Shown here: positions 1 to 62,434 of the stretch, piece by piece | Numbering within the stretch: the first letter of the stretch is position 1 | How the letters are laid out: every line of letters begins with the position of its first letter | From: Sipunculus nudus | Lineage: Eukaryota > Annelida > Sipuncula > Golfingiida > Sipunculidae | Assembly: GCA_026874595.1 (NCBI GenBank) | Contig: CM049313.1 | Coordinates: 28,330,008 to 28,394,007 of the forward strand | Direction: 5' to 3' | DNA: 64,000 bases | The notes under the pieces: model-generated | Told to the model about the DNA's origin: nothing | Seen by the model: the letters and a program-made list of their open reading frames with translations, nothing else | Database searches by the model: none | Position numbers and translations under genes: made by a program

Positions 1-1179
1 GGAAACTAATATGTAGATAGATGGCCCCCATGACCTTGACCTTTGACCTTTTTATCCCCAAATCAATCAGTTTCTTCCCCTATTGGTAGCTCAGCTATAT
101 GTAAAAGATGCAAGGTTTGGGATGAAAAGTTTGGCTGAAAATGCATCCACAATCTTCCTAAATAAGTGGGTACTGTGACCTTGACCTTTGACCCCATGTC
201 CCCAAAATTGGACAGAATCTTCCCCTATTGGCAGGTTTGCGATATCTTGAAGGTGGAAGGTTTGCGATGAAAAGTTTGGTTCAAAAGAATATGCATTCTT
301 TCTAAAGAAATGACTCCTGTGACCTTGACCTTTGACCGTTGGACCCCAAAATTGACACGTTTCTTCCTTTAGTGGTGAGTCATATATAAATTTAGTTTGA
401 AACCAATATGTCAAACTAAACTGGAGTTATCATCTGGAAACTAATTTGTGAACAGATGGCCCCTGTGACCTTGACCTTTGACCATGTGACCCCAAATTCA
501 TTTATGCTCTCCCCATACTGACAAGTCAGCTAAATGCGCAAAATGGAAAGTTTGGGATGAAAAGCTTGGCTTAAAATGCAGCCATAATCTTATTAAATAA
601 GTGAGTCCTGTGACCTTGACCTTTGACCTTGTGACCCCAAAATCATATAGGTTCTTGCTTTAGTGGTTGGCCATACGTCAGTCAAGTTTGAAATCCATGT
701 GTCAATACAACCTGGAGTTATCATCTGGAAACAAATTTGTATGGATGGACAGATGAACAGACAGACAGACAAACAGACAGACAGGGTGATTACTATATGG
801 CATCCACTTTTGATCAATAAACACACCAGGTTTTGGGACACTAGATGTAATTACAGCTGAGAAACTGGCATGGTCAATGTTCAAGGCAAGATTCATGACA
901 ATCCATGCATTAATTATCAAGATATTGAAGGTTTTGTATTATATTTTTGATTATTCTGGGGGGTACTTCAAGCCCCATCGCTCGGAGGTAATAGGTCACA
1001 GTGACCTAATTTCAGGTTTCCAAGGAGATTTTTATTGACCTCCTTGGATGTTCACTTGTTAGTTTCGAGGACCAGCAGTTACGGTTTGTGCCCTGCTTAC
1101 GGACGGCCGGACGACCGGACGGACGACGGACAAAGCGCCATTCCTATACCTCAGTTGACTTACAGTCAGCTGAGCTAAT
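1..1179 (-). mobile_element. Helentron-like interspersed element (HINE) copy H1, cut by window edge
   Basis: Read on the minus strand the copy begins near 1179 with the family start (GCTCAGCTGACTGTAAGTCA), then a GTCC/GTCG-rich stretch, one unit with the CCCCAGAATAAT-type motif, and a tandem array. The array has five units marked by TGACCTTGACCTTTGACC at 31, 176, 320, 466 and 611, a period of 144-146 bp. The 3' palindromic end is outside the window. The small ORFs here are repeat translations without coding meaning. Family assignment to Helentron-associated elements is inferred from the ends seen in other copies. Confidence 0.7.
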
Positions 1180-2310
1180 AAAACGCAAAGAAAGCGATGT
1201 TTAGCCCATAAATTAAAAAAAAAATAATTACATTGTGACGAATGATATTCAGTTCCATCTTTTGGAGCAAACAACCCAAGATTTCATCCGTGTCGGACTC
1301 ACAAGTAATTGTTTAAAAGCGCGTCTGCACCTACACTGGTATATGTGGACTTTCTCTCTCTCTCATATTATCTCGCTAAAAGTCGTATGTAAAGGGCATT
1401 TTGACCTGCTAATCTTATTGATTGTTCATTTGAAAGAATGTCATTTTAAATGAGATAAAAAAAACCGTGCGGCAGAGTTCTTCTAGTTATACCCCGGCTT
1501 GGTGACGATTGACGGTCAGCTGAGCACAAATATATGAGCTGGAGCCCAGTCTCACTGTGGCCTCATTCTCGGGCACGTCAGTCAACTTTGGGGTTCCATC
1601 TGAACGAACGACATACCAAGAGGTTTTAATTCTTTTAATTAATGAATACGCAGTATATAAATATTGACTTCCGTGTGTTCTAATATTTTGTTATATAGAT
1701 AAATCAGCGAGAAGTTGATTTTACAATAATATTTAATTATAAAAAGTATAAAGCATTACTCTGACTTATAATCACTACTGATAAAATCCAAACATGAAAA
1801 GTCCTGTGTAGGCCCTATATACACATGTATCCCTTGTAACCGCTGCCACTGAATGCCTTCAGTTCAGCATCCTTACCCCCTCCCCCCAGCAACCTGAGCG
1901 GACCTCTGACCCCAGGCGTATATTAACACACAGCGGTCTTGGTTACAAGTGACAAAGCAGGCCAGTATAATATTTACATTCAGAGTCACATATCTCTAAT
2001 TTCATAAAATCGCAACCAGTATGTCAGTTCATCGGAGGAGCGAGCGCAGATCACATCGGACCGGGCAGTTTGCCCGGCAGGGCTTATAACAAGGTGTCAT
2101 GATAAGCGGGGAAGCGGAGTACAATAGCCGATCACCGCCGGGGAAATATGACTAGGCAATAAAATTCCAGGGACAGCTTGGCGGACTGTAAGAGTAGACG
2201 TCAGAGTAGACACTCCTTTTCTCAACCCAAAAATGTTCAGACAAGTCAGCCGATATGTTTGTCATTTGTGTCATTGAGCCTATCGCTTGTAAAAGGAATG
2301 CGTACATGTT
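1180..2310. other. Unassigned spacer between two inverted HINE copies
   Basis: I see no recognisable gene. The stretch is moderately AT-rich with a pyrimidine-rich piece near 1880 and a GC-richer piece near 2030-2110. It is the loop of a large inverted repeat whose arms are H1 (minus) and H2 (plus). Confidence 0.5.
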
Positions 2311-3612
2311 TTTTAGCTCAGCTGACTGTAAGTCAACTGAGGTATAGGAATGGCGCTTTGTCCGTTGTCCGTCCGAGCGTCCGGTCGTCCGGCCGTCCGT
2401 TAGCAGGGCACAAACCGTAACTGCTGGTCCTAGAAACTTCTAAGTGAATATCCAGGGAGGTCAATGAAAAATCTCCTTGGAAACCTGAAATGAGGTCACT
2501 GCGACCTATATTCTCCGAGCTTTGGGGCTTGAAAGTACCCCCCAGAATAATCAAAAATTTGATACAAAAACTCCAATATCTTGATAATTAATGCATGGAT
2601 TGTCATGAATCTTACCTTTATTATTGACCATGACTAGTTTTTTCAGTTCCCGAAAATTGGTGGCGCCACCTTTATTTTTTGTTATTTAAACGAACTTTTT
2701 TTTAGTATAAAATGACAACAATCATGTCAGTTTCTCAGCTGTGATTACATCTAGTGTCCCAAAACCTGGTGTGATTATGGATCACAAGCGGATGCCCTAA
2801 AGTAATCACCCTGTCTGTTTGTCTGTTTGTCTAGCTGTCTGTCTGTCCATCCGTCCATCCACACAAATTTTTTTCCAGATGATAACTCCAGGTCAGATAG
2901 TCACATGGATTTCAAACTTGACTTAAATATGGCCAACCGCGAAAGCAGGAACCTGAGGTCAATGGTCAAGGTCACAGGACTCACTTATTTAATAAGATTA
3001 TGGCTGCATTTTAAGCCAAGCTTTTCATCCCAAACTTTCCACCTTACGCATTTAGCTGACTTGCCAGTATGGGGAGAGCATAAATGAATTTGGGGTCACA
3101 AGGTCAAAGGTCACAGGGGCCATCTGTTCACAAATTAGTTTCCAGATGATAACTCCAGTTTAGTTTGACTTATTGGTTTCAAACTTAACTTATATATGGC
3201 TCACCACCAAAGTCCTGTGAGCAAAACTTTTCATCACATACCATCCATCTTCAAGATATTGCTAACCTGCCAACAGGGGAAGATTCTATTCGACTTTGGG
3301 GTCATAGGGTCAAAGGTCAAGGTCACAGGGCCCATCCATTCACAAATTAGTTTATGGATGCTTATTCTGCTTTGGATAGACAGATTGGCTTCAACTTGAT
3401 TTATTATTGACCCACCACTTAAGTAAGTTCATTTTGCTTTTCAGGGTCCAGAGATCAAAGTTGAAGTTCACAGGAGCCACATCTTTAAAAAGATTGTGGA
3501 AGCACTGTAAATCAAACTTTTCATCCCAAACTTTCCATCTTTCACACATGGCTTACTTGCCCAAAGCTTTTTGTCATGTCTGTTCACATATTAATTTTGA
3601 TACAATGCCTGA
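2311..3612 (+). mobile_element. HINE copy H2, 3' end missing
   Basis: Starts with TTTTAGCTCAGCTGACTGTA, followed by the same GTCCGTTGTCC-rich leader as H1, a unit with GGCGCCACC, a CTGT/GTCT-rich stretch and then AGGTCA-rich array units (for example at 2956, 3101 and 3308). The expected end, CAGCTGAGCG..GACCCATGGGTC, is absent; homology fades near 3600. H1 and H2 lie head to head about 1.1 kb apart and could fold back. Confidence 0.7.
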
Positions 3613-9562: not shown

Positions 9563-11220
9563 TTTTTAGCTAAGCTGACTGTTAGTCGACTGAGGTATAG
9601 GAATGGCGCTTTGTCCGTCGTCCGTCTGGGCGTCCGGCAGTCCGGCCGCCGTCAGCAAGGCAAAAATCTTAACTGCTGGACATAGAAACTTCTAAATGAA
9701 ATCCAAGGAGGTCAATAAAAAATCTCCTTGGAAACCCGAAATTAGGTCACTTCGACTTGTATCCTCCTAGCTATGGGGCTTAAAAGTACCCCCCAGAATA
9801 ATAAAAAATATAATACAAAACCTCCAATATCTTGATAATTAATGCATGGATTGTCATGAATCCTGCCTTGATATTGACCATGACTAGTTTTGTCAGTTCC
9901 CGAAAAGTGGTGGCGCCACCTGTATTTTTTTGTTATTTTAACGAATATTTTTTTTTATTTTTTTACTATAAAATTACAACAATCATGTCAGTTTCTCAGC
10001 TGTTATTACATCTTGTGTCCCAAAACCTGGTGTGTTTATTGATCACAAGTGGATGCCATATAGTTATCACCCTGTCTGTCTGTCTGTCCATCCGTCCATC
10101 CACAAATTTGTTTCCAGATGATAACTCCAGGTTGTATTGACACATGGATTTCAAACTTGACTTACATATGGCTCACCACCGAAGCAAGAACCTATATGAT
10201 TTTGGGGTCATGAGGTCAGAGGTCAAGGTCACAGGATTAACTATTTAAAAATGATTATGGCTGCATTTTAAGCCAAGCTTTTAAACCCAAACTTTCCATT
10301 TTGCACATTTAGCTGACTTGTCAGTATGGGAAGAGCATAAATGAATTGGGGTCACATGGTCAAAGGTCAAGGTCACAGGGGCTATCTGTTCACAAATTAG
10401 TTTCCAGATCATGATAACTCCAGTTTAGTTTGACATATTGGTTTCAAAAACTTAACTTATATATGACTCACCACTAAGGTAAGAACCGTGTGGATTTTAG
10501 GTTCCAACGGTCAAAGGTCATGGTCACAGGACTCATTTCTTTAAAAAGAATGCATATGCATTTGAAGCCAGACTTTTCATCCCAAACCTTCCATCCTTAA
10601 GATATTGCTAACCTGCCAATAGGGGAAGATTCTGTTCAATTTTGGGGTCATGAGGTCAAAGGTCAAGGTCACAGTACCCACTTATTAAGACAGATTGTGG
10701 ATGCACTTTAAGCTAAACTTTTCATCCAAAACCTTCCATCTTGCACATATAACTTAGCTGCCAACTGATTGATTTGGGGGTCACAAGGTCAAAGGTCATC
10801 GTCACAGGGGCCCATCTGTCCACCTATTTGTTTCTGGATGATAACTCCAGTTTGGATTGACATATTGGTTTCAATTTTGACTTATATATGACCCACCAAT
10901 AATGTAAAAACCCTTTTTATTTTAGGGGGCATAAGGCCAAAGGTCAAGGTCACAGGACCCACTTCCTCACTTAGCCAAACTTTCTGTCCCAAACATTCTA
11001 TCATCCAGATGTTGCTCACCTGCCAATAGTGGAAGTAACAAGGTCACAAGGTCAAGGTCATGGGGGCCATCCATTCACAAATTAGTTTATGGATGATAAT
11101 CCAGTTTGGGTAGACAGGTTGGCTTCAAACTGATCACAGGACCAATATTTTGGAAAACCTCATAAACATATATATCCTTATAGACAAATGCATCGGAGCA
11201 TCGAGACCCATGGGTCCCTA
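9563..11220 (+). mobile_element. HINE copy H3 with both ends
   Basis: Starts TTTTTAGCTAAGCTGACTG at 9563 and ends with the palindrome GACCCATGGGTC then CCTAG near 11220. Internally it has the GTCC-rich leader, a GGCGCCACC unit, a CTGT-rich stretch and at least six AGGTCA-type array units about 145 bp apart (near 10213, 10357, 10508, 10651, 10786 and 10931). It interrupts gypsy A RNase H. The short ORFs are repeat artefacts. Confidence 0.75.
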
Positions 11221-11221
11221 G

Positions 11222-11611
11222 TTGATATTTCAGATGTTTCCCTTTTATCATGATTATATTCAATGTTTTCAGGAATTTACCCTGGACTGTGATCATATTT
11301 GATGTTTCAGGATTTTCCCATCACCTTATATATATATATATATTTCATGTTTTCAGGAACTACCCATGGACTGATCATGTTTGGTGTTTTCAGGTTTTTT
11401 GCCTTAAAGGTGATAATTTCTGACGTTTCAGGAGTTTCCCCACCACCTTTTATATTTGATGTTTTAGGAATAACCCATGGAGTGATCACGTTTTGATGTT
11501 TTCAGGAGTTTCCTATACTGTGATTATGTTTGATGTTTTCAGGACTATTTTACTTGACTGTAATCATGTTTGATGTTTCAGGAGTTTCCCCATCACCTTA
11601 CATATTTGTCA
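11222..11611 (+). repeat. Minisatellite, about 38-bp unit, 9-10 copies
   Basis: A degenerate tandem array with core GATGTTTTCAGGAGTTTCCC followed by a GACTGTGATCATGTTT-like half. Core positions occur roughly every 37-40 bp (11261, 11299, 11346, 11381, 11421, 11459, 11496 and on). It includes a short TA run near 11327. It lies between HINE H3 and the truncated start of HINE H4. Confidence 0.7.
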
Positions 11612-14600
11612 TCTGAGCTATAGTCGTGGTCCTTTGTCCGTCGGCTGTCCGTCTAGCCGTCCGTCTGTCCGTCCGTCCGTCCGTTAAACTGGCACGTTTT
11701 GACACCGTTGGACCTATCAATCTGAATTCGGCATACCTTTAGATGTCCCGAGTATCTCCTACCATACCGAAAATTGGGTCACAAGGACTTCGTTCGTTCG
11801 AATTATTAAGGAAAACCTCCGTTTTCCATTAAAAATCCATTGTTACACTTCAAGACTGCCTTATATCAAAACCACTGACCTGATATCGATCATTTTTAAA
11901 ATATTAATTCCTCTATATATTTCCAATGTACATACCAGAAATTATTTCTATATTAAAATTCTTGAAATAATGGGCCCGAACATAATGCACCTCGTAAAAA
12001 TTCAGGAAATATATATACTCCCTTAGCTTGAGAATTGCTGATGCTAGAAACTTTTTTTTCAGGTATATAACAATATTTAATCAAGATTCAATTGTATACC
12101 AAAAATATTATATCTGAATTTTTAAAATTTTTAATTCAAGTTTTTAGCATAAATATAAAATCAGTACCTTAAATTTTGCGAAGATTTGACCATGGCACAT
12201 TTTTTTTCCTGTAACTGTTGTGGATTTAATTTTCACAGCATGTTACCATAACCATTTCATCTGTTAACATCTGAAATTTGAAACCAGTTGATCAAAAACT
12301 GTAGATTTTAAACAAGTTTTCAAGCACCATGTAAAGTATTGTTTAGATCAATTATTAAAATATTAAGAAAAAACTTCAGCTTGCAATTAAAAACCCATTG
12401 TTACTCTTCAAGACTGCCTAATATCAAAACCATTTATCCGACTTTGACCATATATAATATACATGTTCTTCTATTCATACTCTATGCACATGCCAGAAAT
12501 GATGTCAGTATTGCGAAATTGTTTAAAGTTATGGGCCAAAAACATAATACACTTTGTAAAAAATCCAGAAATATATTTACTCCCTTAACATGAGAACTGC
12601 TGAAGCCAGAGATTTTTGTCATGGATATATAACATTATTTAATCAAAATTCAATTAAATTCCAAAAAATTAGTTCTGAATTTTTCAAATTTTGCAAGTTA
12701 TTAGCATAAATATAAAATCGGTACCTTAAATTTTGCCTAACTTTGACCGTGGCATGTTTGTTTTCTGTAAGCACTTTTGATATAATTTTCATATCATGCA
12801 AAACAAGGATTTCAGCTTGTTTGTTTTGAAAGTTGAAAGAAATTGGCCAAAAAACTGTAGCTTTTATTATAGTTTTTATGAGATCATGTCAGACCCTAGG
12901 CTCTACCCAGTCCCTCTTCAGTCACCTGTATGTCCTATAGTTGACCTCTGAGGCCAATTATGCACGCTTGAGGCGGGGCATATACTGGCCATAGCTTATG
13001 GCTGGCCTCAGTTGATTCAGGTGTCCAACCGAACTCATCTATTAGTTGTCTAGACCAACAGCATAACAATAAACAATAACTGTAGTCATGTGACTTGAAA
13101 TTTTTAGAGGTCAGAGGCCACGCTCGCACCGGACGTTTTCAGCGAGCGTGGTATCTTAGTTACGTGTAAGGTTTTTATTTGTAATTGTAATTTGTAATTT
13201 CACAGGTATATATATTGGTTCAGACTAGGTAAATGATAAGCTTTCTGGATTGTGTGTATCTAAGAGGGTAAGGCTTGACAATAAAAATTTCAATGTCAAT
13301 GTGACGTAAGTTTGTTAAAAATAAATGTTTATAGGTCTATAATAACAACTTTAAAAAAACCAATAGAAAAGGAATTTGTAGTTGATGAGTAACAGGGAAT
13401 TACCTTGCAATTACTAATGTTTTATGGATTTTGTATGGATGGATGAAAATGTATTCCAAATAACACCATTGAGTCACCTATGGTATTTTTCTTTTCAATT
13501 TTAATAATGAAAAAAAAATTAAATTATATTGTTCTATACTATTAGGGATTATATGAAGGAAATTAATGATAGACAAAGATGCAGTTGATAATATTAATCT
13601 AAATTTCCAGGTCTTTTCCAAGTGTTTCAGCTTGTTAATTTTTATTTATTTCAAAAATAAAAAAAAATTAAATATAACAACATTTAAAAATTTTTTTTAG
13701 ACAAGTCCTGAATAAACATGTCAATATGTTTCACTAATGACATTAAGACACGTGGCCATAACAGCTGTCACAAGACTATGTAAATAATCAAAATTTATAT
13801 TACTGGTTCCTATATTACAGTTATAAAATTAAACTTGCCCATCTCTAGTTTTCTCCTTGTATAATTTATAGGGTATTCTTATCCTTGGGTGATTTTTTAC
13901 ACATGTAATGGTTTTATAGCTGAGATTACTTCAATTTTTTTCTGATACAATTTTTTAAAATAAAAAATATGAATATGATAAAAAATCAAATCTTAGACAA
14001 GTTCTCATTATGATTTCTGTAATGTTAATAATTGTCATAAGACTCTTGCTTTGTCTAGTGTGTAGATTGATGTGAAGGTAGTCCAAAGTGAATATAATAG
14101 TTTTATTTTTTGAATATAAATAAAATTCATTAAACCAGGTACTTATGATCATTATTAAAATTTGTGATATTTGTTATTCTGAATTCTCAAGAACTTTTGT
14201 TTGGCTGAAACTGAATAAATACCAGACATGATGAAGTACTTTACAAATGTATTTAAATGCAAATATGAATATGTACTCCATAATTTTATGCATAAGGATT
14301 GGAATACAGGTAAAAATGAAAGAATTTGAATACAAATGCATTCATGAATATATTCTATAATTATATTTTAATAATCATTTATTTCGATAATATTATTAAA
14401 AAAATCTTTGAAAAAAAGATGATACTGTTACTAAAATTAATTTTAAATTATATTTGACACAATATTTGTTACTAAATTTAATAATTAGTTTAACTTTTCA
14501 AATAATTCTGCTGCAATGTAGGTAAAGTTTTATGGTCAGGTCAAAACCTGTGTGATAATAGCACACCATTTCCAACTATAAATAATATAAATGACATCAG

Positions 14601-14775
14601 TCCTCTTCCCTGTCTCAAAGGGTATTATCAAAATCTTACATAACTTGAGTTAAACACTGTCAACACATAATAGAGCTTATATTACCACACAAAACCAGCC
14701 TTTGCCTAACTCCTCTTCCAAATCATATTTTGTGATCATATATAACAGCTGAGCGCCGTGACCCATGGGTCCCTT
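11612..14775 (+). mobile_element. HINE copy H4, start truncated, with a 559-bp internal duplication
   Basis: Begins inside the family leader (CATCTGAGCTATAG then a GTCCGTCCG tract) and ends at 14775 with CAGCTGAGCG..GACCCATGGGTCCCTT. The body differs from H1-H3. Two long tandem units are aligned by TGTTACACTTCAAGACTGCC at 11841 and its counterpart at 12400, a 559-bp period. An AT-rich stretch (13150-14700) follows. The right flank resumes gypsy A coding sequence. Confidence 0.7.
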
Positions 14776-15800
14776 GTTCTCACTTGCAAACAAGGTCTTG
14801 TTAAAATGGGCGATGACATTCTCGTAACCGTCTTGGACTTGCGATTGTAGAGCACCAATACCTGTATTGCCCGCATTGTGTCGAGAATGAAATCATCGTG
14901 CTAGTGGGGTAAGTAAGTATAGGAGCTGATAATAAGGTATCCTTGAGTTTAGAGAATGCTTCTTGGCAGGCATCATTCCGGTTGAAATGTGTTTGCTGTT
15001 TTAAAACAGTATGCAGAGAACTTGCTATGCCAGCAAAGTTCTTGACAAATCTTCTTTAATAAGAACAGAGTCCTAAGAAGCTCTTTACCTCGGTGACGTT
15101 TCTGGGGATTGGCCAATCCCTCACTGATGCAATTTTCTCAGGATTGGTCGCGATTCCTTCTGCAGAAACAATATGTCCCAGATATTCCACCTTGTTCTTG
15201 AATAAGTGACACTTTTTCGGTTTCAGCTTAAGTCCAGCTTTGCCGATCCTACAGATGACCTCTTGAAGTCTCTCAAGGTGACCGTCGAAACCAGGACTAA
15301 AAACAATGACATCATCTATAAAGAGTAGACAAGTGTGCCATTGTACGCCTGCCAGGCCGCATTCCATCAGGCGTTCAAAGGTTGCTGGTTCATTGCACAG
15401 ACCGAATGGCATTGTTTTAAACTGATACAAGCCTGTGACTGTGGCAAAGGCTGTATTCTGGGCATCTGCAGGTTTCATGCCCACTTGTCAGTACCCACTG
15501 GCAAGATCGAGTGTTGAAAACCACTTGGCTTTACCCAAGGCATCTAGTGAGTCATCAATCCTGGGAAATGGATAACTGTCCTTGAGAGTGACATTATTCA
15601 ATTTCCTGTAGTCAACACAAAAACGTGTTGACCCATCTTTCTTTCTGACCAGCACAATAGGGCTATTCCAAGGACTATTTGAAGGCTTGATGACATTCTG
15701 CTTGAGCATCCGCTGAATTTCCTGTATACACTCCTCTTTCTTAGCTAATGGAGGTCGCCGTGGTGCCTGTTTGATAGGTTGGGCGTCACTAGTGTTGATG
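14776..15800 (-). pseudogene. Gypsy A reverse transcriptase, frameshifted
   Basis: Minus-strand frames show the RT hallmarks in order: NSPWNSPIVLVRKKDGSTRF, VDYRKLNNVT, FSTLDLASGY, then after a frameshift at about 15485 the FKTMPFGLCNEPATFERLM block. The catalytic box is LLFIDDVIVF (FIDD in the YxDD position), followed by KKCHLFKNKVEYLGHIVS. Between 14776 and 15056 only broken remnants of the RT/RNase H connection remain. It would copy element RNA into cDNA in a working element; this copy cannot. Confidence 0.88.
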
Positions 15801-15805
15801 CTGTG

Positions 15806-19353: not shown

Positions 19354-20745
19354 TGTAACGTGACCATGACCTTACAGGTCAAAGGTCATGCCTAAGCGCA
19401 TGCAGAGATAATTAAAACAAGTGACCCATGGGTCATGATGCTCAGCCGACTGATATGTAGACAATAAGTCCTTCCAGTCTTGAAAAAACTGATGTAAAAC
19501 GCATCATGATCAATATCCATGCAAAAAAATCATGGTGATCAATGCATTAGTTGATCAGATACTTGAGCTTTTGTATTAAATTTATCATTATTCTGGGGGT
19601 ACTTCAGAGCCCCATAGCTTGAAGAATATGGGTAACAGAGATCTACTTCCAGGTTTCCAAGGAGACTCTTCATGGATCTCTCAGGATTTAAAAGTAAGAA
19701 GATTCAAGGTCCAGCCGTTACGATTTGTGCCCTGTTAACAGATGACCGCATCTTTTAAAGTCTCAAAAATAGAAAAAAATTGTAAAAATATCGAAAAAAA
19801 TACAGGTGGTACCACAAGTCTGCAGAAACTGATGAAACACTCGCATCTTTTAAGGTCTCAAAAATTGGGGAAAAATCGTTAAAAAAAAAATGCAGGTAGC
19901 GCCACCAGTCTGCAGAAACTGATGAAACACTCCATGATCAATATCCATGCAAAGAATCATGGTGCTCAATGCATTAGTTGTTCAGATACTTGAGCTTCCG
20001 TATCAAATTTTTCATTATTCTGGGGGGTTCTTCGGAGCCTCATAGCTTAAGAGAATATGGGTAACAGAGACCTAATTCCAGGTTTCCAAGGAGACTTTCT
20101 ATGGACCTCTCTGTATGTAAAGTGAGAAGATTACAGGTCCGGCAGTCATGATTTGTGCCCTGTCAACGGACAGACGGCCGGACGGACGACGGACAAAGAG
20201 TGATCGCTATAGTTCAGATGACTAACAGTAACCCGAGCTAAAAAATAAGACGTTCATAAATTTAAAAAACATTTATTTAATTAACAAAATACAATAACAG
20301 TTGCCAAAGATGTAATGAGAAATCCGTAGATTTAGCGGGTTATTCCCAGATAATTACACAGATCAAATGCCGAAAAGAGAAAATGAAACAATACATACAA
20401 TAGCTCTAGCCCCTGTAGTTATTTTTAAAAGAAAAGGCCCTCGCTGATCTCACCAAATGCTGTTAGTTCTACTTCGAGCTGGGCTGTCTAGACGAAATCA
20501 GCTGTTTGTTGTCTGGGCGACGCGCACCCGTTGAGCTCTGGCGACGATCTGACCTAGACATGGCCAGACGCCCCCCTTAAATAGTTTCCCTTCCGGAACC
20601 CCGTTTGACACGCGGAAGGCAGGAAGCCAAGCGGGAGCCCAGTTTACAAGCGGAAAGCCGTATGACAGACGGAAGACCGCTTTACAACCTGAAACATGTC
20701 ACACAGGTCCCTGCCAGCAATACTTGTTTTTCAACCCTCGTTACA
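19354..20745 (-). mobile_element. Gypsy A 5' LTR containing a HINE
   Basis: On the plus strand it begins TGTAACG (19354) and ends CGTTACA (20745), giving the TG..CA ends and short inverted repeat of an LTR. Once the nested HINE H5 (about 19415-20245) is removed the LTR is about 560 bp. The 20746 side is LINE-B sequence. Confidence 0.6.
19415..20245 (-). mobile_element. HINE copy H5 inside the gypsy A LTR
   Basis: Reverse orientation: AACAAGTGACCCATGGGTCA at the 19415 side (3' palindromic end) and CCCGAGCTAAAAAA at the 20245 side (5' end). Two units of the roughly 340-bp type (TCCATGATCAATATCCATGC, CATTATTCTGGGG, TTTCCAAGGAGAC, TTGTGCCCTG) and a shortened repeat between them fill the body. 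Flanking A/T bases fit T-T insertion. Confidence 0.75.
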
Positions 20746-33325: not shown

Positions 33326-33445
33326 ACCAGGAATTTCCTAACTTTCCGGATCAGTGTCCTGATCAAGTGACGGCTTTTCTGTCACTATTGGTACAGGCTG
33401 TACTTTATCACCTGCAACATCATTACCTAGTAGCAACTGAATTCC

Positions 33446-34400: not shown

Positions 34401-34419
34401 TTCTTTTGACCATATTGTT

Positions 34420-35297: not shown

Positions 35298-35586
35298 AGC
35301 TTTTTTTCACACTTAGCCCTAAGTGTTGTCCCAAACGCAACAACTGTTCTTTTGACAACTGTTCACGTTGATCAGGGTTCGGATCTTCAACAAATGTCTC
35401 AGGTTTGAAATCTGCCATGTTAAGATGTTAAAACAATAACAAAAAACCACTGAGATAAATCCTGTAAACAATGTACTGTAAACAATATGTAATCTTGTAA
35501 ACAATGGATGATAAAACAATGTGTCCAGGTCAAGACCTAATAAATTTGAAAACTATTAAGCATCCCGACAAGAGCCCTCAATTTTA

Positions 35587-36357: not shown

Positions 36358-36621
36358 CTCTTTTCAATAAATTCCTTTTAAATTTAAGATTTCAAAAATT
36401 AAATCCTTATGTATACATGCAGTGAAAATTAAATCAACAGTTCTTACAGGGAAAATACTTTCTATGGCCAAAATTGGACAAAAATCAAGGTATTGATTTT
36501 TTATTTATGCTAATAACTTAGAAAAAATGCATAATTCTGATCTAATCTTGACCCAATTTTTGGTATGGTAGGAGATTTTGGACATCTAACTGTATGCATA
36601 ATTTTACATTCGTAGGTTTAA

Positions 36622-37016
36622 GCTGTGTTTCCATTCATCCGGAAATCACGTACGTCTCGTACGCAAAAAATCGGATCCCTCTTTTTAAGATGAACTGTTT
36701 CCATATGTACATTTAAACGTGCTCCGCAAACGTATCCGCAAAAACGGACAGCATCGAAACGGATCGGTGAGCGATTCATCCGTTTTACGGATGGCAAAAA
36801 TGCCTACATTTCCTTACAGTGCCCCGGCGCCGGGTGTGATGAGACATATTGATCTTCTTCCTGCCTGTCGTCCTTGCAGTTTAAGAAGAGGCACGTGAAA
36901 GGGTATCCGCAAGAAAAACTTGCGTACTTATGGAAACAGTTTTTGCGGATTGCGCACTATAGAACGTACGTACGTCTTTTGCGGATTCGTTTTTTGCGGA
37001 TACATAGAAACACAGC
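36622..37016. mobile_element. MITE with TTAA target duplication
   Basis: 395 bp flanked by TTAA at 36618-36621 and 37017-37020. Terminal inverted repeats: GCTGTGTTTCCATTCATCCG at the left, and at the right the complement of GCTGTGTTTCTATGTATCCG. No coding capacity. TTAA suggests mobilisation by a piggyBac-type transposase (inference). The HINE sequence AACGGTGTCAAAACGTGCC resumes right after it, giving the empty site by comparison with 11690-11720. Confidence 0.75.
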
Positions 37017-37663
37017 TTAACGGTGTCAAAACGTGCCCTGTTAACGGACGGACGGCCGGCCGAACGAACGACGGACAAAAGACCATGACTATAGCTCAGA
37101 TGACTTATAGTCAGCTGAGCTAAAAATTGATGGAAGCAATTCCGATGATCCCTCTGGCGGCCATTTTGGTTAAATCCAAGATGGCCGCTATCTGAATAGA
37201 GAAAATGCCATATTTCATGGCATCGAAATGGGGGTTTTCAGCATTCTGAGTTGAATGGGGAATACTGTGTCAGGAATACTGTGTCAAGGTCAGCTGTACT
37301 GGGTCAAGGTCGATTACCACCAAAATACACTCAAGTTAACTTTATTCTGAACACAGTTGTATATAAAATTTAAACAGTAAAAATTTTACATGAACATTAT
37401 TTAGCTTTAATACTTAAATAAAAAGAATTGACTAATCCAAGATGGCCACAAACTGCATTTAAAAGCATATTTCTGCATAATATGTGACAAGGATAAAGCG
37501 TGTTTCAGGTTCCTGAGATTATGTACAAAGTTGGGACAATTATTTTGGGACGAGGATCACAATCTTGGGAATTTGTTTATAAAAATAGTTCATGTATAGC
37601 CAAGATCCCAGTGGCCAAAGTATTTAGAGTAATGAGTACGTGAAGTAGATATATAATACCTTT

Positions 37664-45265: not shown

Positions 45266-46775
45266 AACAAGTGACCCAGGGGTCATGACGCTCAGCTGTC
45301 CAGAAAGACATTCACAAAAAGAATTTTATCATCTTAATGCCAAATTTTGTAGGTGGTATCCCAGTTCAACTGAAGCATAGCTCAAAGGATATGGGTAACA
45401 GAGAACTAAGTTCAGGTTTCCATAGAGATACGTCATGGACCTTCCTGGATGCCAAGTTAAATGTAAAATAAAAGTTAAAAGAAAATGCGTAAAAATTTGA
45501 AACAAGTCCTACAGGCCTAATGCGAACCTGTGCAATAATTTATACACCAGGTATAATGCTTCAGTGCTGGGCCATTACTTTTCAAGTGGGCCTACATAAC
45601 TTGTATACGACGAAGGTATCAGAAATATACACTCATGCCCCATTTCAGGCTGATATCCCCTCCTGAGAAGCAGGAACATACACTGTGCAAAAATTAATGT
45701 AGGTGGCGCCACAAGTCTTCTATACGACATAGGTTTATGATATGTATAAATTTGCCCAATTTCAGGCTGATATATCAAATTCCTCTGGAAAAATAAGCAG
45801 GCACATGCACTGTGCAAAAGTCATTGTAGGTTGCGCCACCTGTCAATGTGAACGAGAAAGCCATCAAAGACCCAGGGACAGGTCAAAATATCATCCCAAT
45901 ACATAAAACTTATCGAGTTTGATGCACTGGGTTGACCAGGCTTGGGTGAGAAAGGCAGTTGCCCCGAGTGAACTGTGACAAATTGCTGGCTCAAGCTACT
46001 GCACTGAGTGAACTCTTGACCTGCGCTTGGCTAGACTGAGTGAACTTTTGACCTGTATTGGCTGCACTGAGTGAACTCTTGACCTGTTGCATAATCTAAC
46101 ACAGTTGGCAGTTTGCCAAAGCTATAAATAGATCCAGGCTGACCTTTGGCTCCAAATCTGATAGAGAGGGCAGTCTACCAAAGCTATAAATAGAATGCAG
46201 CTACTGCTCTGAGTGAACTCTTGACCTATACCTGGCTGCATTGAGTGAACTCTTGACCTGTTGCCTAATCTGATACAGTTGCCAGTCTGCAAAAGCTATA
46301 AATAAATCCAGGCTGACTTTTGGCCTGAAAAAATCTGAAATAGTTGGCAGTCTGCCAAGCTATTTAACAACTTAGCTAAAATGAGCTGTTATGGCATATG
46401 ACTAAATTCAGCTTCCCATAACATAGCCAAAGGTCACTAAACAGAGACCAAATGAACAAACTTCAGTACAAAAAAGGCCGATGCAGGTGGCGAGATTATT
46501 TCTGTGAAATATTGAACAATTCGGCTGGACCGTTTCTAAGGAGAAGAATTTAAAAGGTTTAATTAGCTTTTTCTCTATAAAATCTAAGAAAATGCAGTTA
46601 GCCAAAAATAAGCAAAATAGAGTTTTTCAGATGGCTATTTTTTTTGCCAAAAAGTTGTGATGCTAGCGCCTGTAGTTTTCAAGATAGTATGGGTTAACGT
46701 ACAGACGACGGCGACGGACTCCCGGACGACGGACGCTGGACGACGCCACACCATTGCATTAGCTCACAGTTTCGC
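45266..46775 (-). mobile_element. HINE-like copy H8a with divergent 5' end
   Basis: Begins (reverse) with AACAAGTGACCCAGGGGTCA, then TGACGCTCAGCTG, and ends near 46775 with an alternative start (complement: TTTAGCGAAACTGTGAGCTA, then a GTCC/GTCG-rich leader). Inside: two units of about 117 bp near 45600 and 45716 (TATACGACGAAGGT / TATACGACATAGGT, both followed by TTTCAGGCTGATAT) and a short-repeat zone at 45950-46370. Confidence 0.55.
45950..46370 (+). repeat. Short-unit repeat zone with recurring CTATAAATA boxes
   Basis: CTGCACTGAGTGAACTCTTG and close variants recur five or more times, interleaved with GGCAGTCTGCCAAAGCTATA plus AATAGATCCAGGCTGAC blocks. CTATAAATAG or CTATAAATAA appears near 46122, 46186 and 46297. 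CTATAAATAG matches both a TATA box and the MEF2 consensus YTAWWWWTAR. Confidence 0.65.
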
Positions 46776-47749
46776 TAAAAATCCAGGTGCTGCCACCAGT
46801 CTGCAGGAACTAATGAAACAGTCAATGATAAATATGCATGCAAAGATTAATGGTGATCAATGCATTAGTTGTTCAGACACTGGAGCTTTTGTATCAAATT
46901 TTAATTATTCTGGGGGGGGGGGGGGTTACTTCTGAGCCCCGTAGCTCGCCGGATTTGGGTAACAGAGACCTTATGTCAAGTTTCAAAGGAGATTCTTCAT
47001 GGACCTCCCAGGATGTCAAGTTAGAAGTTTCTAGGTCCAATAGTTACGATTGGTGTCTTGTTAACTGACAACCACATCTTTAAAGGTCTCAAAAATAGAG
47101 AAAAAAATGTGTGAAAATTTAAAAAATCCAGGTTGCGCAACCATTCCGCAGGAACTGTTGAAACACTCCAAAATGAATATGCATGCAAAGAATCATGCTG
47201 ACCAATGCATTAGTTGTTCAGATACTTGAGCTTTTGTATCAAATTTTCAATTATTCTTGTAGGTACTTCTGAGCCCCTTAGCTCGGAGGATGTGGGTGAC
47301 TGAGACCTAATTTCAGGTTTCCAAGGAGACTTTTCATGGACCTTCCTGGATGTCGAGTTAGAAGATTACAGGTCTAATGGTTACAATTTGTGCCCTGTTA
47401 ACAGACGATAGCATCTTAGGTCTAAAAAATGAAAAAATGTGTAAAAATCCGAAAAAAAAATCCAGATGGCACCACCAGTCTGCAGGAACTGTTGAAACAC
47501 TCCATGATGAATAAACATGCAAAGAATCATGTTGATCAATGCATAAGTTGTTCAGATACTTGTGCTTTTGTATCAAATTTTCCATTATTCTGTGATGTCC
47601 TTAGGAGCCCCATAGCTTGAAGGATATGGGTAACAGAGAACTAATTTCAGGTTTCCAAGGAGACTTTTAATGGGCCTCCCGGCATGTCAAGATAGAAGAT
47701 TCGAGGTCCAGTCGTTGCGATTTGTGCCCTTTAAACAAACGACCCCATG
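46776..47749 (-). repeat. HINE 340-bp-type units (H8b), three units
   Basis: Three successive units, each with TCTGCAGGAACT, ATGCATGCAAAGA.T, ATGCATTAGTTGTTCAGA, a CAAATTTT.ATTATTCT block, GAGCCCC.TAGCT, TTTCCAAGGAGA and TTGTGCCCTGTTAAC. They run from 46780, 47140 and 47470. The reading frames through them are shared repeat translations, not genes. Confidence 0.7.
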
Positions 47750-48815
47750 TTTATAGGTCATGGGCCATGACGCTCAGCTGTATTCAAGGAGCCTTGAACA
47801 ATGGGCAAAAAGAGTCAAAATCATGTATTTTGCCAATAGCCCTTAGATATAGGTTAAAGTGACCTTAATCTACATGCAGCTGCTACCGTTTATGCCCTCC
47901 TGACTAATTTAGTGTTCAAATCAAGTTCTTTCACACAGCTTGTAGAAAATGGGTCAGAGTGAAACCCTTATCAGGTTTCCAAGGAGATTTTAAGGGGCCT
48001 CCCTGAAAGTCATGTATGAGGATTTTAGGTCAAATGGATACAATTTGTGCCCCACCTGACTCACTTGGTGCTCATGTTTTCTCCCCTAATTTACAAAATA
48101 TAGTTAACCATGACCTAATTTCAATTTTTCAAGGATATTTTGCATGGAACTCTAAGGATATCAGTTAAAAGATTCTAGGTCCAACACTCATGATTTGTAC
48201 CCTGTTAATGGACAACTGCTTCATTGGAAGTTCTCAAAAATAGACATAAAAATGTGTAAAAAAAGTCGAAACAAGAATGGCTCTGTTTTTGCAGTGCGAA
48301 ACAGATATATGTCTCCCCCCTATGATTCTTCCCGAAACATAACGGGTAAAATATGCAATATCTCATAACATTGAATCTAGATCTCAGCAGATTAGACTTT
48401 GAAGGTCAAGGTCAATGCTTTCCGAACTCTGATGACATTTTGGCAGAAAAACTGGTGTGTCAAATTTGAAGAAACATCTTCAGTGTCTACAAAGTTATTG
48501 GGGTTACAATAAGCCTAGAATTGCATATGTTTTGACCTTGAAGATCAAGGTTCAAGGTCACAGGATTTTTATCACGTCCAAGATTTTGGTAGGAACAATG
48601 AGTGTTTCAAATTTTGGAGGAAAATATGCAGCCCTTCAAAAGTTATCTCATCCACAAGACAATAACTATAATTCCACTGATTTGACCTTGAAGATCCTGG
48701 TCAAGGTCACCAGGTTTCAAACTCTTCTGAGAGCTTGGTAGTAACAATTGTTGTTCCAAATTTGAGGACAAAATTGGAAATACTACAAAAGTTATTGGGT
48801 TCATAAAAATGTTAC

Positions 48816-50255
48816 TATTCTATATACTTCATAAATATGGCATTAGAGGAAAAATATTTAATATCCTCAAGTCAATGTACTCGAAATTACAGTCTTGGGT
48901 CTTAACAAATGAAGGAATAACTAGTTATTTTAAATGCAATGTTGGCACAAGACAAGGATGTATGATCAGTCCTTTACTTTTTACTTTTTTTCATGAACGA
49001 ATTTTATCTTACTATACATTCTGAGGAAGACAGTATTTAAATATAGGTCCAGAATTATCTTAACTTTTAATGCTGATGTTTGCTGATGATGTGGTCTGCT
49101 TTGCAGACACAGCAGGCAGATTACAATCCAAGATTATTAAATTAGAAGTATTTTGTAATAATTATGGAATGAAAGTCAATGTCGAAAAAACTAAAATAGT
49201 TGTGTTTAGAAATGGGGCAACTTTGAGAAAATATGAAAAATGGTTTTATAAAGGTAAACGCTTAGAAGTTGTCAACAATTATAAATACCTGGGAGGCACA
49301 TTTACAAGTTTACTTAATTGGTCCAAAATGAAGCAGAATCTAATTTGTCAAGCAAACAAAGCTTTAATAATAATCAAACAATTTATCTCAAACTACAGGC
49401 AACTATCTATTTGTAAATTCTTCTTTCTTTTTGATAGGATGGTCCTTCCAATTCTGTGCTATGGTAGTGAACTTTGGGGTTTTGAAACATGTGACAATAT
49501 TGAAAGTGTACATACCAAGTTCTGTAAATATATTCTCCAAGTTAATATGAATACACCAGTTGCTGCAGTACTAGGAGAATGTGGGCGGTTGCCCTTGAAG
49601 ATTCATTATATAATAAGAGCTATAACTTATTGGACTAAATTGATAAATATGACAAATAATAGATCACCAAAGCAATTGTATAATAAATTAAATCGCTTAG
49701 ATGAAGCAGGAAAACAGAACTGGGTAACTAATATAAAGAAAATATTATTTTCGCAAGGATTTGGCTATGTTTGGATTGAACAAGATGTAGGGGATGTTAA
49801 ATTATTTATCTCAGTATTGAAACAGAGATTAAATGATTCTTTATTGCAGGATTGGACGAGTAGTATATCTAAAAATCGTCGATTAAACACATACTCAACT
49901 TTTAAATTAACTTTAAGCACCGAAAAATATTTAACAGTTCCACAGAATGTTAACTATAGGAAAAGTCTGTTCATCACATAATTTAGAAGTAGAAAAAGGA
50001 AGGCATAGTAATACTCCATGGGATGAAAGGTTTTGTAAATATTGTCTAAGATATGGGGAAGCTGTTGTGGAAGATGAGCATCATTTTATCATGAAATGCC
50101 TATTGTATACAGACTTGAGAATCTAGTATATTGATGATTTAAGTACATTTACATCTCTGATGGCAGATAATAATGCCCATACAATAAAACAATTAGCAAC
50201 CTATGTACACTATGCCTTTATTAGGAGAGCTGATGAATTGAAAGCTATCATCTAA
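48816..50255 (+). pseudogene. LINE-D ORF2 C-terminal part (RT to zinc finger)
   Basis: Begins with LHKYGIRGKIFNILKSMYSK, then VGTRQGCMISPLLF. A stop near 49021 interrupts it. The long 303-codon frame (49070-49981) holds the catalytic box LMFADDVVCFADT, NNYGMKVNVEKTKIVVFRNG, NNYKYLGGTFTSLLNW, CYGSELWGFETCDNIESVHT and GFGYVWIEQDVGDVKLFI. A frame change at about 49980 leads to a C-terminal zinc-finger-like end (FCKYCLRYGEAVVEDEHHFI followed by MKC). Better preserved than LINE-C of the same family. Confidence 0.88.
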
Positions 50256-50649
50256 GTAATCTATTTATTTCACTTACTTATTCATCTGCCAATTAAGAAA
50301 TAGATAAACTGTTTTCCATATATGCATTGTACTACTGTTTGTTTTATATGTTCACTTATTTATTATTATTATTATTATAATTGGTATTATTATTGTTATT
50401 ATTCATGACCTCTAAATGATATGAAACATGTGATTACAAAATTTCTGCTTGTGTTTAGATATTGCAAACATGGGGTTTTCATACAACATTTTCATACAAG
50501 ATTGTGTTTTAATGCATGTTTTGTTAGTTCATGTTATGCAGTTACATTTTGTTATTGTTGAATTTTTATGATTCTTAACACATGCTCTTTGTGGAACCAT
50601 GGACCTGAGGCCTTTTATTTCAGAATAAATTTTTATTCATTCATTAAAA
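48816..50649 (+). mobile_element. LINE-D, 5'-truncated insertion with 11-bp target duplication
   Basis: AAAAATGTTAC flanks it at 48805-48815 and 50650-50660. Starts abruptly inside RT and ends with AATAAATTTTTATTCATTCA followed by an A tract. The 3' UTR (50256-50630) has an ATT-repeat run. The HINE array sequence before and after is continuous, so the pre-insertion site is clear. A typical 5'-truncated target-primed product. Confidence 0.9.
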
Positions 50650-51462
50650 AAAAATGTTACATTTCAGGAATTTTTACATTGAAGAGAAAGGTCAAGGTCA
50701 CCTGGTTTTGAACTTGTCCGAGAACATGGTAGGAACAATTAGTGTACCAAACGTTTTGGCAGATTTGACCTTGAAGATGATGGTCAAGGTCACCGGTTTT
50801 CTAAATTTTCCAAGAACATGGTAGGAACAATATGTGTACCAAATTTGAGGGGAAAATGTGGAATACTTCAAAAGTTATGGGGTTCACTAAAATTTCCCAT
50901 TTCGGCAGATTTTACCTTGAATATGAAGGCCAAAGTCACTGGTTTTCAAACTCCTCCGTATGAACAATTGGGTGTTTCAAATTGTGGCGGAAAATATGCA
51001 GATCTTGAAAAAGTTAACGCATTAACAAGATATCCTACAGATGAGGACGACAATGACAGAAGATGACAATGAAAACACATAACATGTCTCAATGGGAGGT
51101 GGGGGGATGGGTGGTTAGCCACCAGTCTACAGGAACTGATGAAGCACTCCATGATCCAAAAGCATGCAAAGAATCATAGCAATCAATGTATTAGTTATTC
51201 AAATACAGAAGCTGTTGAATCTTATTTATAATTATTCTGGGGGTACTTACGAGCCCCATTGCTCAGAGGATATGGGTAACAGAGACCTAATTTAAGGTTT
51301 CCATGAAGACTTGTCATGGGCCTCCCTGGTTGTCAAGTAAGAAGATTTTTAGGTCAAACAGTGAAAATTTGTGCCTTATAACCAGATGACTGCTTCATTT
51401 GAAGGTCTCAAAAATATAAAAAAAAAATGCGTGAAAATTCGAAAAAAATACAAAATTGCTGC

Positions 51463-58410: not shown

Positions 58411-58468
58411 TCAAACTCACCACACGACGATAACACAGGATATTTTCCCGGGTCTGACAGGCACCAAA

Positions 58469-60288: not shown

Positions 60289-62434
60289 TTTTAGCTCAGC
60301 TGACTGTAAGTCATCTGAGCTATAGCGATCACCCTTTGTCCGTCGTCCGTCCGGCCGTCTGTCCGTTAACAGGGCACAAATCGTAACCGCTGGACCTGGA
60401 ATCTTCTTACTTGACATCCAGGGAGGTCCATGAAAATTCTCCTTGAAAACCTGGAATTATGGCTTTGTTACCCATATTCTTTGAGCTATGGGGCTCCGAA
60501 GTAACCCCCCCCCCCGAATAATGGAAAATTTGATACAAAAGCTCAATTATTTGAACAACTAATGCATTGATCACACTGATTCTTTGCATAGATATTGATC
60601 ATGGAGCGTTTCATCAGTTTCTGCAGATTGGTGGCGCTACCTGTATTTTTTTTATTTTTAACGATTTTTTTATCTATTTTTGAGACCTTAAAAGATGCGG
60701 TTATCTGTTAACAGGGCACAAATCATAACGACTCGACCTAGAATCTTCTGTCTTAATATGCAGGGAGGTCAATGAAAAGTCTTCTTGGAAACCTAAATTT
60801 AGGTCTCTGTTGCCCATATTCTTCGAGCTATGGGGTTCCGAAGTACCCCCCCCCCCCGAATAATGGAAAATTTGATACAAAAGCTCCAGTATCTGAACAA
60901 CTAATGCATTGATAACCATGATTTTTTTGTATGGATATTGGTCATGGAATGTTTCATCACTTTCTGCAGACTGGTGGCGCCACCTGTATTTTTTTCGATT
61001 TTTTACGAATTTTTTTCTCTGTTTTTGAGACCTCTTAAGATGCGGTCATCTGTTAACAGGGCACAAATCCTAAGGACTGGACCTAGAATCTTCTCTCTTG
61101 ACATGCAGGAAGGCCCATGAAAATTCTCTGTGGAAACCTGGAATAAGGTCTCTGTTACCCATATTTTTCGAGCTATGGGGCTCTAAATACACCCCAGAAT
61201 AATGGAAAATTTGGCCTATTAAAAGTCTCCTTGGAAACCTGGAATTAGGTCTCTGTTACCTATAATCTTCGAGCTATAGTGCTTTGAAGTACCCCCAAGA
61301 ACAACTAAAAAGTTGATACAAAATCTCTAGTATCTCAACAAATGGTTCATTGATTGCCATGATTCTCTGCATGCATATTCATCATGAAGTGTTTCATCAA
61401 TTCCTGCTGACTGGTGGCGCCACCTCTATTTTTTCGATTTTTTATGTTTTCTATTTTTGAGACTTTAAAGATGCAGTCATCTGTTAACAGGGCACAAAAA
61501 GTAACCATTGGACCTAGAATCTTCTTTCTTGTCATGCTGGGAGGTCAATAAAAATATCTCAGTGGAAACCTGAAATTAGGTCTCTGTTACCAATATGCTC
61601 TGAGCTATGGGGCTCAGTAGACCCCCAAGAATAAATTGAAATTTGATACAAAAGCTCTAGTATCTCAACAAATTGTGCAATGATTGCCATGTTTTTTTTT
61701 GCATGCATATTCTTCATAGAGTGTTTCATCAATTCTTGCAGACTGATGGCGCCACCTGGATTCTTTCCAATTTTTATGCATTTTCTCACTATTTTTGATA
61801 CCACCAAAGATGCGGTCGTCTGTTTACAGGGCAGGGAGGTCAATGAAAAATATCCTTGGAAACCTGAAATTAGGTCTCTGTTACTCATATTCTCTGAGCT
61901 ATGGGGCTTATAAGCACCCCTAGCATAATTGAAAATTTGATACCAAAGCAGGGCACAAATTATAATCAGTGGACCTTGAATCTTCTAATTTAAAATCCAG
62001 GGAGGTCCATGAAAAGTCTCCTTTGAAACATGAAATCAGGTCCCTGTTACCAATATTCTATGAGCAATGGGGCTTATAAGCACATCCCATAATATTTGAA
62101 AATTTGATACCAAAGTAGGGCACAAATCATAACAATTGGACCAAGAATCTTCTCACTTGGCATCCTGAGAGTTCCTCAAAAGTTCTCCCATCAAAACCTG
62201 AAATTGGGTCACTGTGACCTATATTCTCATAGTTTGTTTGAGCATCCCAGAAGTAATGAAAAATACACCAGATTGCCAGGTTCCACAGGAAAGGCTGGTT
62301 GGATTGTCATCAAATTTGGTGTGCTAATGGGTCTTGATGAACTTAAGCTACCTTTATTATCTTAATTAGTTTCCTGTGCAAGGACATATTGTCAACATGT
62401 CAGTCGGCTGAGCCTCATGACCCATGGGTCACTT
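60289..62434 (+). mobile_element. HINE copy H9 with both ends
   Basis: Starts TTTTAGCTCAGCTGACTGTA and ends GGCTGAGCCTCATGACCC plus ATGGGTCACTT at 62434. Internal 340-bp-type units are marked by GGGCACAAAT or GGGCACAAA at 60372, 60714, 61059 and 61490, with shorter remnants to 62120. It lies inside the multicopy-family gene at a T-rich site (CTGTTT | TTCATT). Poly-C runs at 60507 and 60847. Confidence 0.8.

What the first reader, a model, noticed from the sequence alone, without database searches (positions are those of the whole stretch)
1..62434. A Helentron-like non-autonomous family dominates the window
About ten copies share a start TTTTAGCTCAGCTGAC, a subterminal repeat GCTCAGCTGACTG near both ends in inverted orientation, a 12-bp palindrome GACCCATGGGTC close to the 3' end only, and internal tandem arrays of at least three types (145 bp, 340 bp, 559 bp). 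Asymmetric subterminal repeats, a 3' hairpin and T-T insertion without duplication are the published signs of Helentron-associated interspersed elements. That one set of ends carries quite different arrays suggests capture or exchange of array cores.
Basis: partly seen in the sequence, partly recalled or inferred. Interest (0 to 1): 0.75.

Follow-up and report, generated by a model that had tools for sequence, protein, structure and literature searches.

The report
Rolling-circle transposon family and its engine
The repeats in this stretch are gene-less hitchhikers of a rolling-circle jumping gene (a Helentron); the same genome holds the complete, protein-coding version with the same two ends and the same repeat array, a partner that two published oyster studies had looked for and not found.

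Summary
The window holds about ten copies or remnants of a non-autonomous Helentron family (HINE): 5' subterminal repeat, its inverted partner, GTCC microsatellite, tandem core (337, 145 or 557 bp), 3' subterminal repeat and palindrome, the plan published for oyster Cg_HINEs. The genome holds at least 37,236 such 5' ends and 12,237 3' ends. Empty sites of two window copies show insertion into T-runs with no duplication other than Ts. Five of five Helentron copies examined upstream start at this 5' end and carry the same 337-bp array; seven of ten examined downstream end at this 3' end, 0.5-1.0 kb after an ORF encoding Rep, PIF1 helicase and endonuclease. One 14.9-kb copy has its own empty site. 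So the 337-bp array is native to the autonomous element, not captured; only the 145- and 557-bp cores, absent from the pieces examined, may be acquired. Two otherwise unrelated arrays share a 15-bp motif holding GGTGGCGCCACC, a word present 111,729 times; its role is unknown.

The parts
1..1178 (-). HINE with 337-bp monomer (862-1099) then 145-bp array (14-673); 5' end at 1178; runs off the window
2312..3536 (+). HINE: 5' end 2312, 337-bp monomer 2399-2702, 145-bp array 2948-3536; no 3' end found
9565..11223 (+). HINE with both ends: 5' end 9565, 337-bp monomer 9652-9963, 145-bp array 10165-11096, 3' end 11196-11223 with palindrome
11608..14778 (+). HINE of the 557-bp subfamily: partial 5' end at 11608, two 557-bp units, 3' end 14746-14778
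19416..20242 (-). HINE with both ends and parts of three units of the 337-bp array
21047..21915 (+). HINE with both ends and about 1.5 units of the 337-bp array; paralogous empty sites found, which put its 3' end about 4 bp further on
31401..37124 (-). 5' end (37124) and 3' end (31401-31427), 557-bp subfamily by similarity to the copy at 11608; the interval holds LTR-retrotransposon-like ORFs, so one interrupted copy or two remnants
45266..47734 (-). HINE remnant: three 337-bp units (46777-47734), 280-bp-type fragment 45679-45869, 3' end 45266-45298; no 5' end
47759..51379 (-). HINE remnant: 337-bp units at 51117-51379 and 47934-48208, partial 3' end 47759-47780; interrupted by a region with a LINE-like ORF (by eye) and other repeats
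60290..62437 (+). Best-preserved HINE: 5' subTIR and inverted repeat 60290-60325, GTCC-type microsatellite, 337-bp array 60365-62263, 3' subTIR and palindrome 62401-62437; paralogous empty sites found

Best explanation
The window's repeats are HINEs: non-autonomous copies of a Helentron (endonuclease-encoding rolling-circle transposon) that is present in full in the same genome. The autonomous element is about 12.9-16.3 kb in the three copies with both ends read: 5' end (TTTAGCTCAGCTGACTG with its inverted partner), GTCC microsatellite, a 337-bp tandem array, in some copies a 280-bp array, one long ORF (Herpes_teg_N-like domain, Rep, PIF1 helicase, AP-type endonuclease), then 0.5-1.0 kb to the 3' subTIR, palindrome and CTTGTT or CTAGTT. 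The HINEs keep the ends and the array and lack the ORF. Inferred mechanism: the Rep nicks at the 5' end, the helicase peels off a single strand, the 3' palindrome marks the end, and the strand joins a T-rich target between Ts with no target duplication; HINEs are moved in trans because they keep the ends. Shown: shared ends, shared array, homology breaks at both ends, empty sites, ORF domains. Inferred: the rolling-circle steps, mobilisation in trans, and that the HINEs arose by loss of the ORF.
For: 5' end: in 5 of 5 autonomous copies examined upstream a HINE 5' end scores 59-72 bits (profile made of non-autonomous copies only), and in the four pairs of copies compared similarity starts 3-15 bp before it. 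3' end: 7 of 10 copies have the HINE 3' end (28-39 bits) at a fixed distance after the ORF: about 1.0 kb in four copies whose 1,070 bp are 98-99% identical and stop at the 3' end, and 0.5-0.6 kb in three of a second subfamily. The 337-bp array begins 80-103 bp after the 5' end on the same strand in 5 of 5, as in the HINEs, and is 82% identical over 941 bp to window element 60290 in the one copy tabulated. ORF: Helitron_like_N 6e-25, PIF1 2e-23, Exo_endo_phos_2 7e-8, with the Helentron-type GSPHIH at Rep motif 2 (signature from PMC4067079). Empty sites: two window HINEs (6 and 8 paralogous sites aligned) and one autonomous copy, 90% identical. 15 of 65 exact 5' ends on contig C1 have an exact same-strand 3' end within 6 kb downstream; the three control arrangements give 1, 1 and 0 of 65.
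Against: For 2 of 10 autonomous copies (C13 and C3:75.3 Mb, a 96% identical pair) no 3' end was found in the fetched DNA; their similarity runs to the end of the piece, so their end was not reached. In a third (L042) a 29-bit match lies 2.0 kb after the ORF with no sister copy to confirm it. With the first, shorter upstream pieces (about 4.4-5.7 kb) only 1 of 5 showed the 5' end; the other four appeared after extension by 3.5-4 kb. HINE ends are so common (one 5' end per about 38 kb) that single ends near a Rep gene could be chance; the case rests on constant position and on homology breaks. The shared 3' part is only about 35 bp in the seven copies. Three of the five (C13, D, L048) hold a second, internal 5' end. 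No transposition was observed.
Confidence: 0.92

Rival explanations
1. The Helentron genes merely sit among HINE insertions: the ends found next to them belong to nested HINEs, and the HINEs are driven by some other family.
For: HINE ends are very dense; some autonomous copies do have extra HINE ends (internal 5' ends in C13, D and L048; a second 3' end just after the first in L040).
Against: The ends sit at constant distances from the ORF in independent copies, similarity between copies stops at them and the flanks differ, and the C17 copy has an empty site at exactly these ends.
Confidence: 0.04
2. A TIR transposon (MITE-like) family with short inverted repeats.
For: The subterminal repeats are inverted relative to each other, and such elements were earlier annotated as MITEs (PMC4067079, section read).
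Against: The outermost bases are not inverted repeats (TTTTAGC... against ...CACTTGTT), the 3' palindrome lies at one end only, and empty sites show no duplication except Ts.
Confidence: 0.02
3. Array cores are captured host satellites, swapped between common ends.
For: The 145-bp and 557-bp cores are absent from the autonomous pieces examined (5 upstream, 10 downstream); in four copies (three in the window, and L009) the 145-bp array follows a 337-bp stretch.
Against: The 337-bp array is in 5 of 5 autonomous copies and the 280-bp array in 2 of 5; the 145-, 557- and 337-bp groups carry their own diagnostic bases next to the 5' end, so ends and cores seem to have diverged together.
Confidence: 0.35

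Closest known systems
Cg_HINE elements of Crassostrea gigas (Vojvoda Zeljko et al. 2020, PMC7492417)
   Same: Same plan: 5' subTIR + complementary IR + GTCC-type microsatellite + satellite-like tandem core + 3' subTIR + palindrome; T-rich target, no duplication; related ends with unrelated cores (their group 2).
   Different: Their monomers are 138-181 bp; here about 337, 280, 145 and 557 bp. They could not relate any autonomous Helentron to the HINEs; here one is found with both ends and the array. Sequence relatedness between the two was not tested (no oyster sequence at hand).
Helentron / HINE pairs of mite, mosquito and Drosophila incl. DINE-1 (Thomas et al. 2014, PMC4067079)
   Same: Rep-helicase-endonuclease ORF with GSPHxH motif; non-autonomous partners share the ends and lack the ORF; T-rich targets without duplication; some HINE copies hold tandem repeats.
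   Different: Here a long native tandem array lies between the 5' end and the ORF of the autonomous element (I saw no such array described for the autonomous elements in the sections read), and the ORF has an N-terminal Herpes_teg_N-like domain; an RPA ORF was not looked for.
Pearl elements of oyster and blood ark (cited in PMC7492417)
   Same: Elements classed as HINE with short arrays of up to six core repeats.
   Different: Core about 160 bp; known here only through the citing paper.

Membership tests
HINE (Helentron-associated interspersed element) | 5' and 3' subterminal inverted repeats (11-15 bp) | tested here: met
   GCTCAGCTGACTG at the 5' end, CAGTC(A/G)GCTGAGC at the 3' end
HINE (Helentron-associated interspersed element) | 5' inverted repeat complementary to the subTIR, then microsatellite (Cg_HINE type) | tested here: met
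   ...CTGACTGTAAGTCATCTGAGC..., then GTCCGTCC-type repeats, by eye in 10 of 10 genome loci chosen by the 36-bp end pattern (the inverted repeat is part of that pattern) and in window copies
HINE (Helentron-associated interspersed element) | Palindrome near the 3' end only | tested here: met
   GACCCATGGGTC, perfect in 4 of 8 window 3' ends; 12,237 3' ends genome-wide at <=3 mismatches, reversed control 0
HINE (Helentron-associated interspersed element) | Insertion in T-rich sites without target duplication | tested here: met
   Empty sites for two window copies and one autonomous copy; a hidden duplication of Ts alone cannot be excluded
HINE (Helentron-associated interspersed element) | Autonomous Helentron partner with shared ends | tested here: met
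   5 of 5 copies share the 5' end, 7 of 10 the 3' end, an eighth unconfirmed, two not reached
Helentron (autonomous partner) | Rep + PIF1 helicase + C-terminal AP endonuclease in one ORF | tested here: met
   P0002: PF14214, PF05970, PF14529
Helentron (autonomous partner) | S between G and P at Rep motif 2 (GSPHxH) | tested here: met
   VEFQQRGSPHIH in P0002; signature from PMC4067079
Helentron (autonomous partner) | RPA ORF | not tested
   Reported for mite Helentrons in PMC4067079; not searched here
Canonical Helitron | 5' TC, 3' CTRR with hairpin, A-T target (recalled definition) | tested here: not met
   Ends are TTTTAGC... and ...CACTTGTT, target a T-run
TIR transposon / MITE | Terminal inverted repeats and target duplication | tested here: not met

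The most novel reading that the evidence does not exclude
The arrays are not junk cargo but tandem binding platforms for host DNA-binding proteins that lie in the promoter position of the autonomous Helentron (between the 5' end and the ORF), as tandem promoter monomers do in some retrotransposons (recalled). Two otherwise unrelated arrays (337 and 280 bp) share little beyond GGTGGCGCCACCTGT, which holds a palindrome that recalls the core of the insulator protein CTCF's site (recalled, not tested); the 145-bp array best conserves AGGTCAAAGGTCAAGGTCA, which recalls nuclear-receptor direct repeats (recalled, not tested). If so, these transposons have spread much of some 110,000 copies of the first motif and 22,000 of the second through one animal genome.
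Probability: 0.2. Interest if true: 0.75.

Novelty: new member of a known kind. Interest (0 to 1): 0.48.

Why it matters
HINEs with satellite-like cores are thought to seed and spread satellite DNA in bivalves, but what moves them was unidentified: PMC7492417 could not link any autonomous Helentron to Cg_HINEs, and PMC7992393 found no autonomous element in the oyster and took the copies as likely inactive remnants. Here the enzyme-bearing element is found with both ends and the same array, with an open frame free of stops in at least two copies and 98-99% identical 3' regions in four, so the family may be, or recently was, active. It also changes the order of events: the main array belongs to the autonomous element, so capture by the non-autonomous copy is not needed for it.

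Tried and rejected
Autonomous candidate family A/B (OTU-domain type, L019-L022; open ORFs of 2250 and 2229 aa) had no HINE 5' end better than E = 4.6 and no 3' end row in 16.0 and 15.5 kb, but its own ends were not reached; set aside. The degenerate 3'-end match after the C13 ORF, which I first took for its end, is not one: similarity to L041 runs on past it.

Head-to-tail junctions as a sign of rolling-circle concatemers: only 16 exact ones genome-wide, too few to argue from; self-insertion into the terminal Ts would explain them too.

Motif as the most conserved part of the arrays: true for AGGTCAAAGGTCAA in the 145-bp unit (0.97 against median 0.79, 22 units); for the palindrome nearly so in one half of the 280-bp unit (rank 7 of 269 windows; rank 46 in the other half, 61 matches) but not in the 337-bp unit (rank 82 of 322, 127 matches; second among CpG-holding windows there, behind an overlapping one), so selection on it is not shown.

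A paper search for the palindrome core GGTGGCGCC gave 102 papers; none of the 15 titles listed concerns such repeats. A search on CTCF in molluscs and transposable elements was seen as a listing only.

The species was not determined; 'bivalve' rests on resemblance to published elements only.
Full report
Where it lies.

Check of the observation. The three motifs are far above chance. A profile scan built from genome and window copies (7 window 5' ends and 3 window 3' ends among them, which match by construction) gave 21 rows; after setting aside 5 reverse readings of the near-palindromic 5' end, 8 five-prime ends (7 full, 1 partial) and 8 three-prime ends (1 partial) remain, making about ten elements or remnants. 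Four stretches have both ends within 2.2 kb: 9565-11223, 20242-19416, 21047-21915 and 60290-62437. The cores are a 337-bp unit (in all but the two copies of the 557-bp group), followed in the copies at 1178, 2312 and 9565 by a 145-bp array, and a 557-bp two-copy repeat, 76% identical, in the copy at 11608. My hand-drawn extents cover 26% of the window. The rest includes LTR-retrotransposon-like and LINE-like ORFs (by eye).

Scale. A 36-bp 5'-end pattern with up to 3 mismatches occurs 37,236 times in the genome and its reversed control 0 times; a 37-bp 3'-end pattern 12,237 times, control 0. The threefold difference is not explained; the 3' pattern may fit fewer subfamilies, and solo 5' ends may be more common. 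The tool lists the first 100 places of each. From these I took the 65 five-prime and 99 three-prime places on C1 up to 33.3 Mb, all exact: 15 of 65 five-prime ends have a three-prime end on the same strand within 6 kb downstream (0.8-5.2 kb); opposite strand downstream 1, same strand upstream 1, opposite upstream 0.

Insertion sites. For the copies at 60290 and 21047 I joined the two flanks and searched the genome. One search gave 10 rows: 2 are the flanks themselves, 8 lie elsewhere; I fetched 6 of these 8. One search gave 24 rows: 2 are the flanks, 22 lie elsewhere; I fetched 8 of these 22. All 14 aligned sites run through the joint and have a T-run there. In the copy at 21047 four bases at the joint are missing from the empty sites, so its 3' end lies about 4 bp further than I had set it. 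No duplication other than Ts is seen; a duplication of Ts alone cannot be told from the element's own Ts, as PMC4067079 also says (section read).

The autonomous partner. The genome holds at least 143 matches to the Helitron Rep domain (150 of 195 candidates scored). One family, typed by protein P0002 (C13:9106153-9113400), has Rep, PIF1 helicase and a C-terminal endonuclease in one open frame, an N-terminal Herpes_teg_N-like domain, and GSPHIH at Rep motif 2. A search with it gave 42 matched pieces at 17 loci including itself, with only 20 of 14,699 candidates scored, so the family may be larger. I fetched the DNA after the ORF of 10 copies and before the ORF of 5. After the ORF, the HINE 3' end was found in 7 of 10 at 28-39 bits; in an eighth, L042, a 29-bit match lies 2.0 kb away and is unconfirmed. 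In four copies (D = C17, L040, L043, L047) 1,070 bp are 98-99% identical and the similarity stops at the 3' end; in three (L044-L046) the similarity (78-81%) stops at a variant 3' end ...GGCCCATGGGCCACTAGTT (L045 and L046 share one more 71% stretch further on at different distances, a separate repeat). The two misses, C13 and L041, are 96% identical to each other to the end of the fetched piece, so their end was not reached. Before the ORF, the first pieces (about 4.4-5.7 kb) showed the 5' end in 1 of 5 copies; after extending the other four by 3.5-4 kb, 5 of 5 have it at 59-72 bits, and in the four pairs compared similarity starts 3 to 15 bp before it. Three of the five (C13, D, L048) also hold a second 5' end further in. 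Both ends are thus known for three copies: C17 about 14.9 kb, C9 about 16.3 kb, C1 about 12.9 kb (coordinates derived). The C17 copy has an empty site, 90% identical to its joined flanks, about 100 kb away, again a T-run. In family A/B, a different Helitron-like family, no such end was found in the DNA fetched, whose ends were not reached.

The arrays. The 337-bp array begins 80-103 bp after the 5' end, on the same strand, in 5 of 5 autonomous copies, and 75-129 bp after it in 8 of the 10 five-prime-end HINE loci L009-L018 and in L028 and L032; the other two, L010 and L012, match the 557-bp unit. Window element 60290 and the autonomous copy on C1 share 941 aligned positions at 82% identity from the 5' end on. 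A tree of the first 380 bp of 19 sequences mixes autonomous and HINE copies: autonomous C13 is 93% and 91% identical to HINEs L028 and L016, window 60290 is 90% identical to autonomous L048; the split that holds C13 and six HINEs has support 99, while the finer groupings of C13 with L028 and L016 stay below 90. This fits repeated loss of the ORF from several autonomous lineages, but the sample is small. The 280-bp array lies inside D and L048; C13's upstream piece has a single fragment, and the match in L049 lies before its 5' end. The 145- and 557-bp units gave no match in the 5 upstream and 10 downstream autonomous pieces, none of which spans a whole element.

Shared motifs. GGTGGCGCCACC occurs at 111,729 sites, its reversed form at 14; a comparison word from the same 337-bp unit, GGTCTCTGTTAC, 49,016 times, reversed 154. 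How many of these sites lie in transposon copies was not counted. The 337- and 280-bp units share GGTGGCGCCACCTGT and otherwise only matches of 9 bp or less at E 1.1 or worse. Its conservation is high in one half of the 280-bp unit, less in the other, and ordinary in the 337-bp unit except among CpG-holding words. AGGTCAAAGGTCAAGGTCA occurs 22,468 times, reversed 0, and lies in the best conserved stretch of the 145-bp unit (22 units). Resemblances to CTCF and nuclear-receptor sites are recalled, not tested.

Literature. PMC7492417 (Results, and Discussion part 1 of 2, read) describes the same architecture in C. gigas and says that none of ten autonomous Helentrons could be related to the HINEs. 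PMC4067079: Results part 1 of 3 and one further section read. PMC7992393 (passages) found no autonomous element in the oyster. PMC8268682, PMC11136912, PMC12628747 and PMC10294476 (passages) discuss the satellite link or bivalve transposons; the passages shown name no partner. Searches (listings) showed no title or abstract start that reports an autonomous partner of a bivalve HINE; the library holds only open-licence papers.

Verdict. An ordinary kind of element in an extraordinary number, with the added value that its autonomous partner is identified and carries the array itself.

Noticed in passing
window 52491-58713: Two 245-bp direct repeats, 100% identical, flank a 1469-aa open frame on the minus strand: looks like a recently inserted LTR retrotransposon, described only.
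   Followed up: no
G000, e.g. window 60973-60984; L048, L053: The perfect palindrome GGTGGCGCCACC occurs at 111,729 sites (reversed word: 14) and lies in two otherwise unrelated tandem arrays.
   Followed up: partly
window 14-673, 2948-3536, 10165-11096; L009: The 145-bp units best conserve AGGTCAAAGGTCAAGGTCA, 22,468 exact copies genome-wide.
   Followed up: partly
L023 (protein P0002, residues 27-172): The autonomous Helentron protein starts with a domain matching Herpes_teg_N (E 1e-11).
   Followed up: no
L019-L022: A second Rep/helicase family with an OTU protease-like domain and tandem arrays after the ORF; its ends were not reached.
   Followed up: partly
L040, about C10:71595527-71595570 (minus strand): An autonomous 3' end is followed at once by a 44-bp stretch identical to the 3' end of the 557-bp subfamily (window 14735-14778): probably one element inserted at the tail of another.
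   Followed up: no
window 43596-44088: A separate 145-bp tandem array (3.4 units) that does not match this family's 145-bp unit.
   Followed up: no
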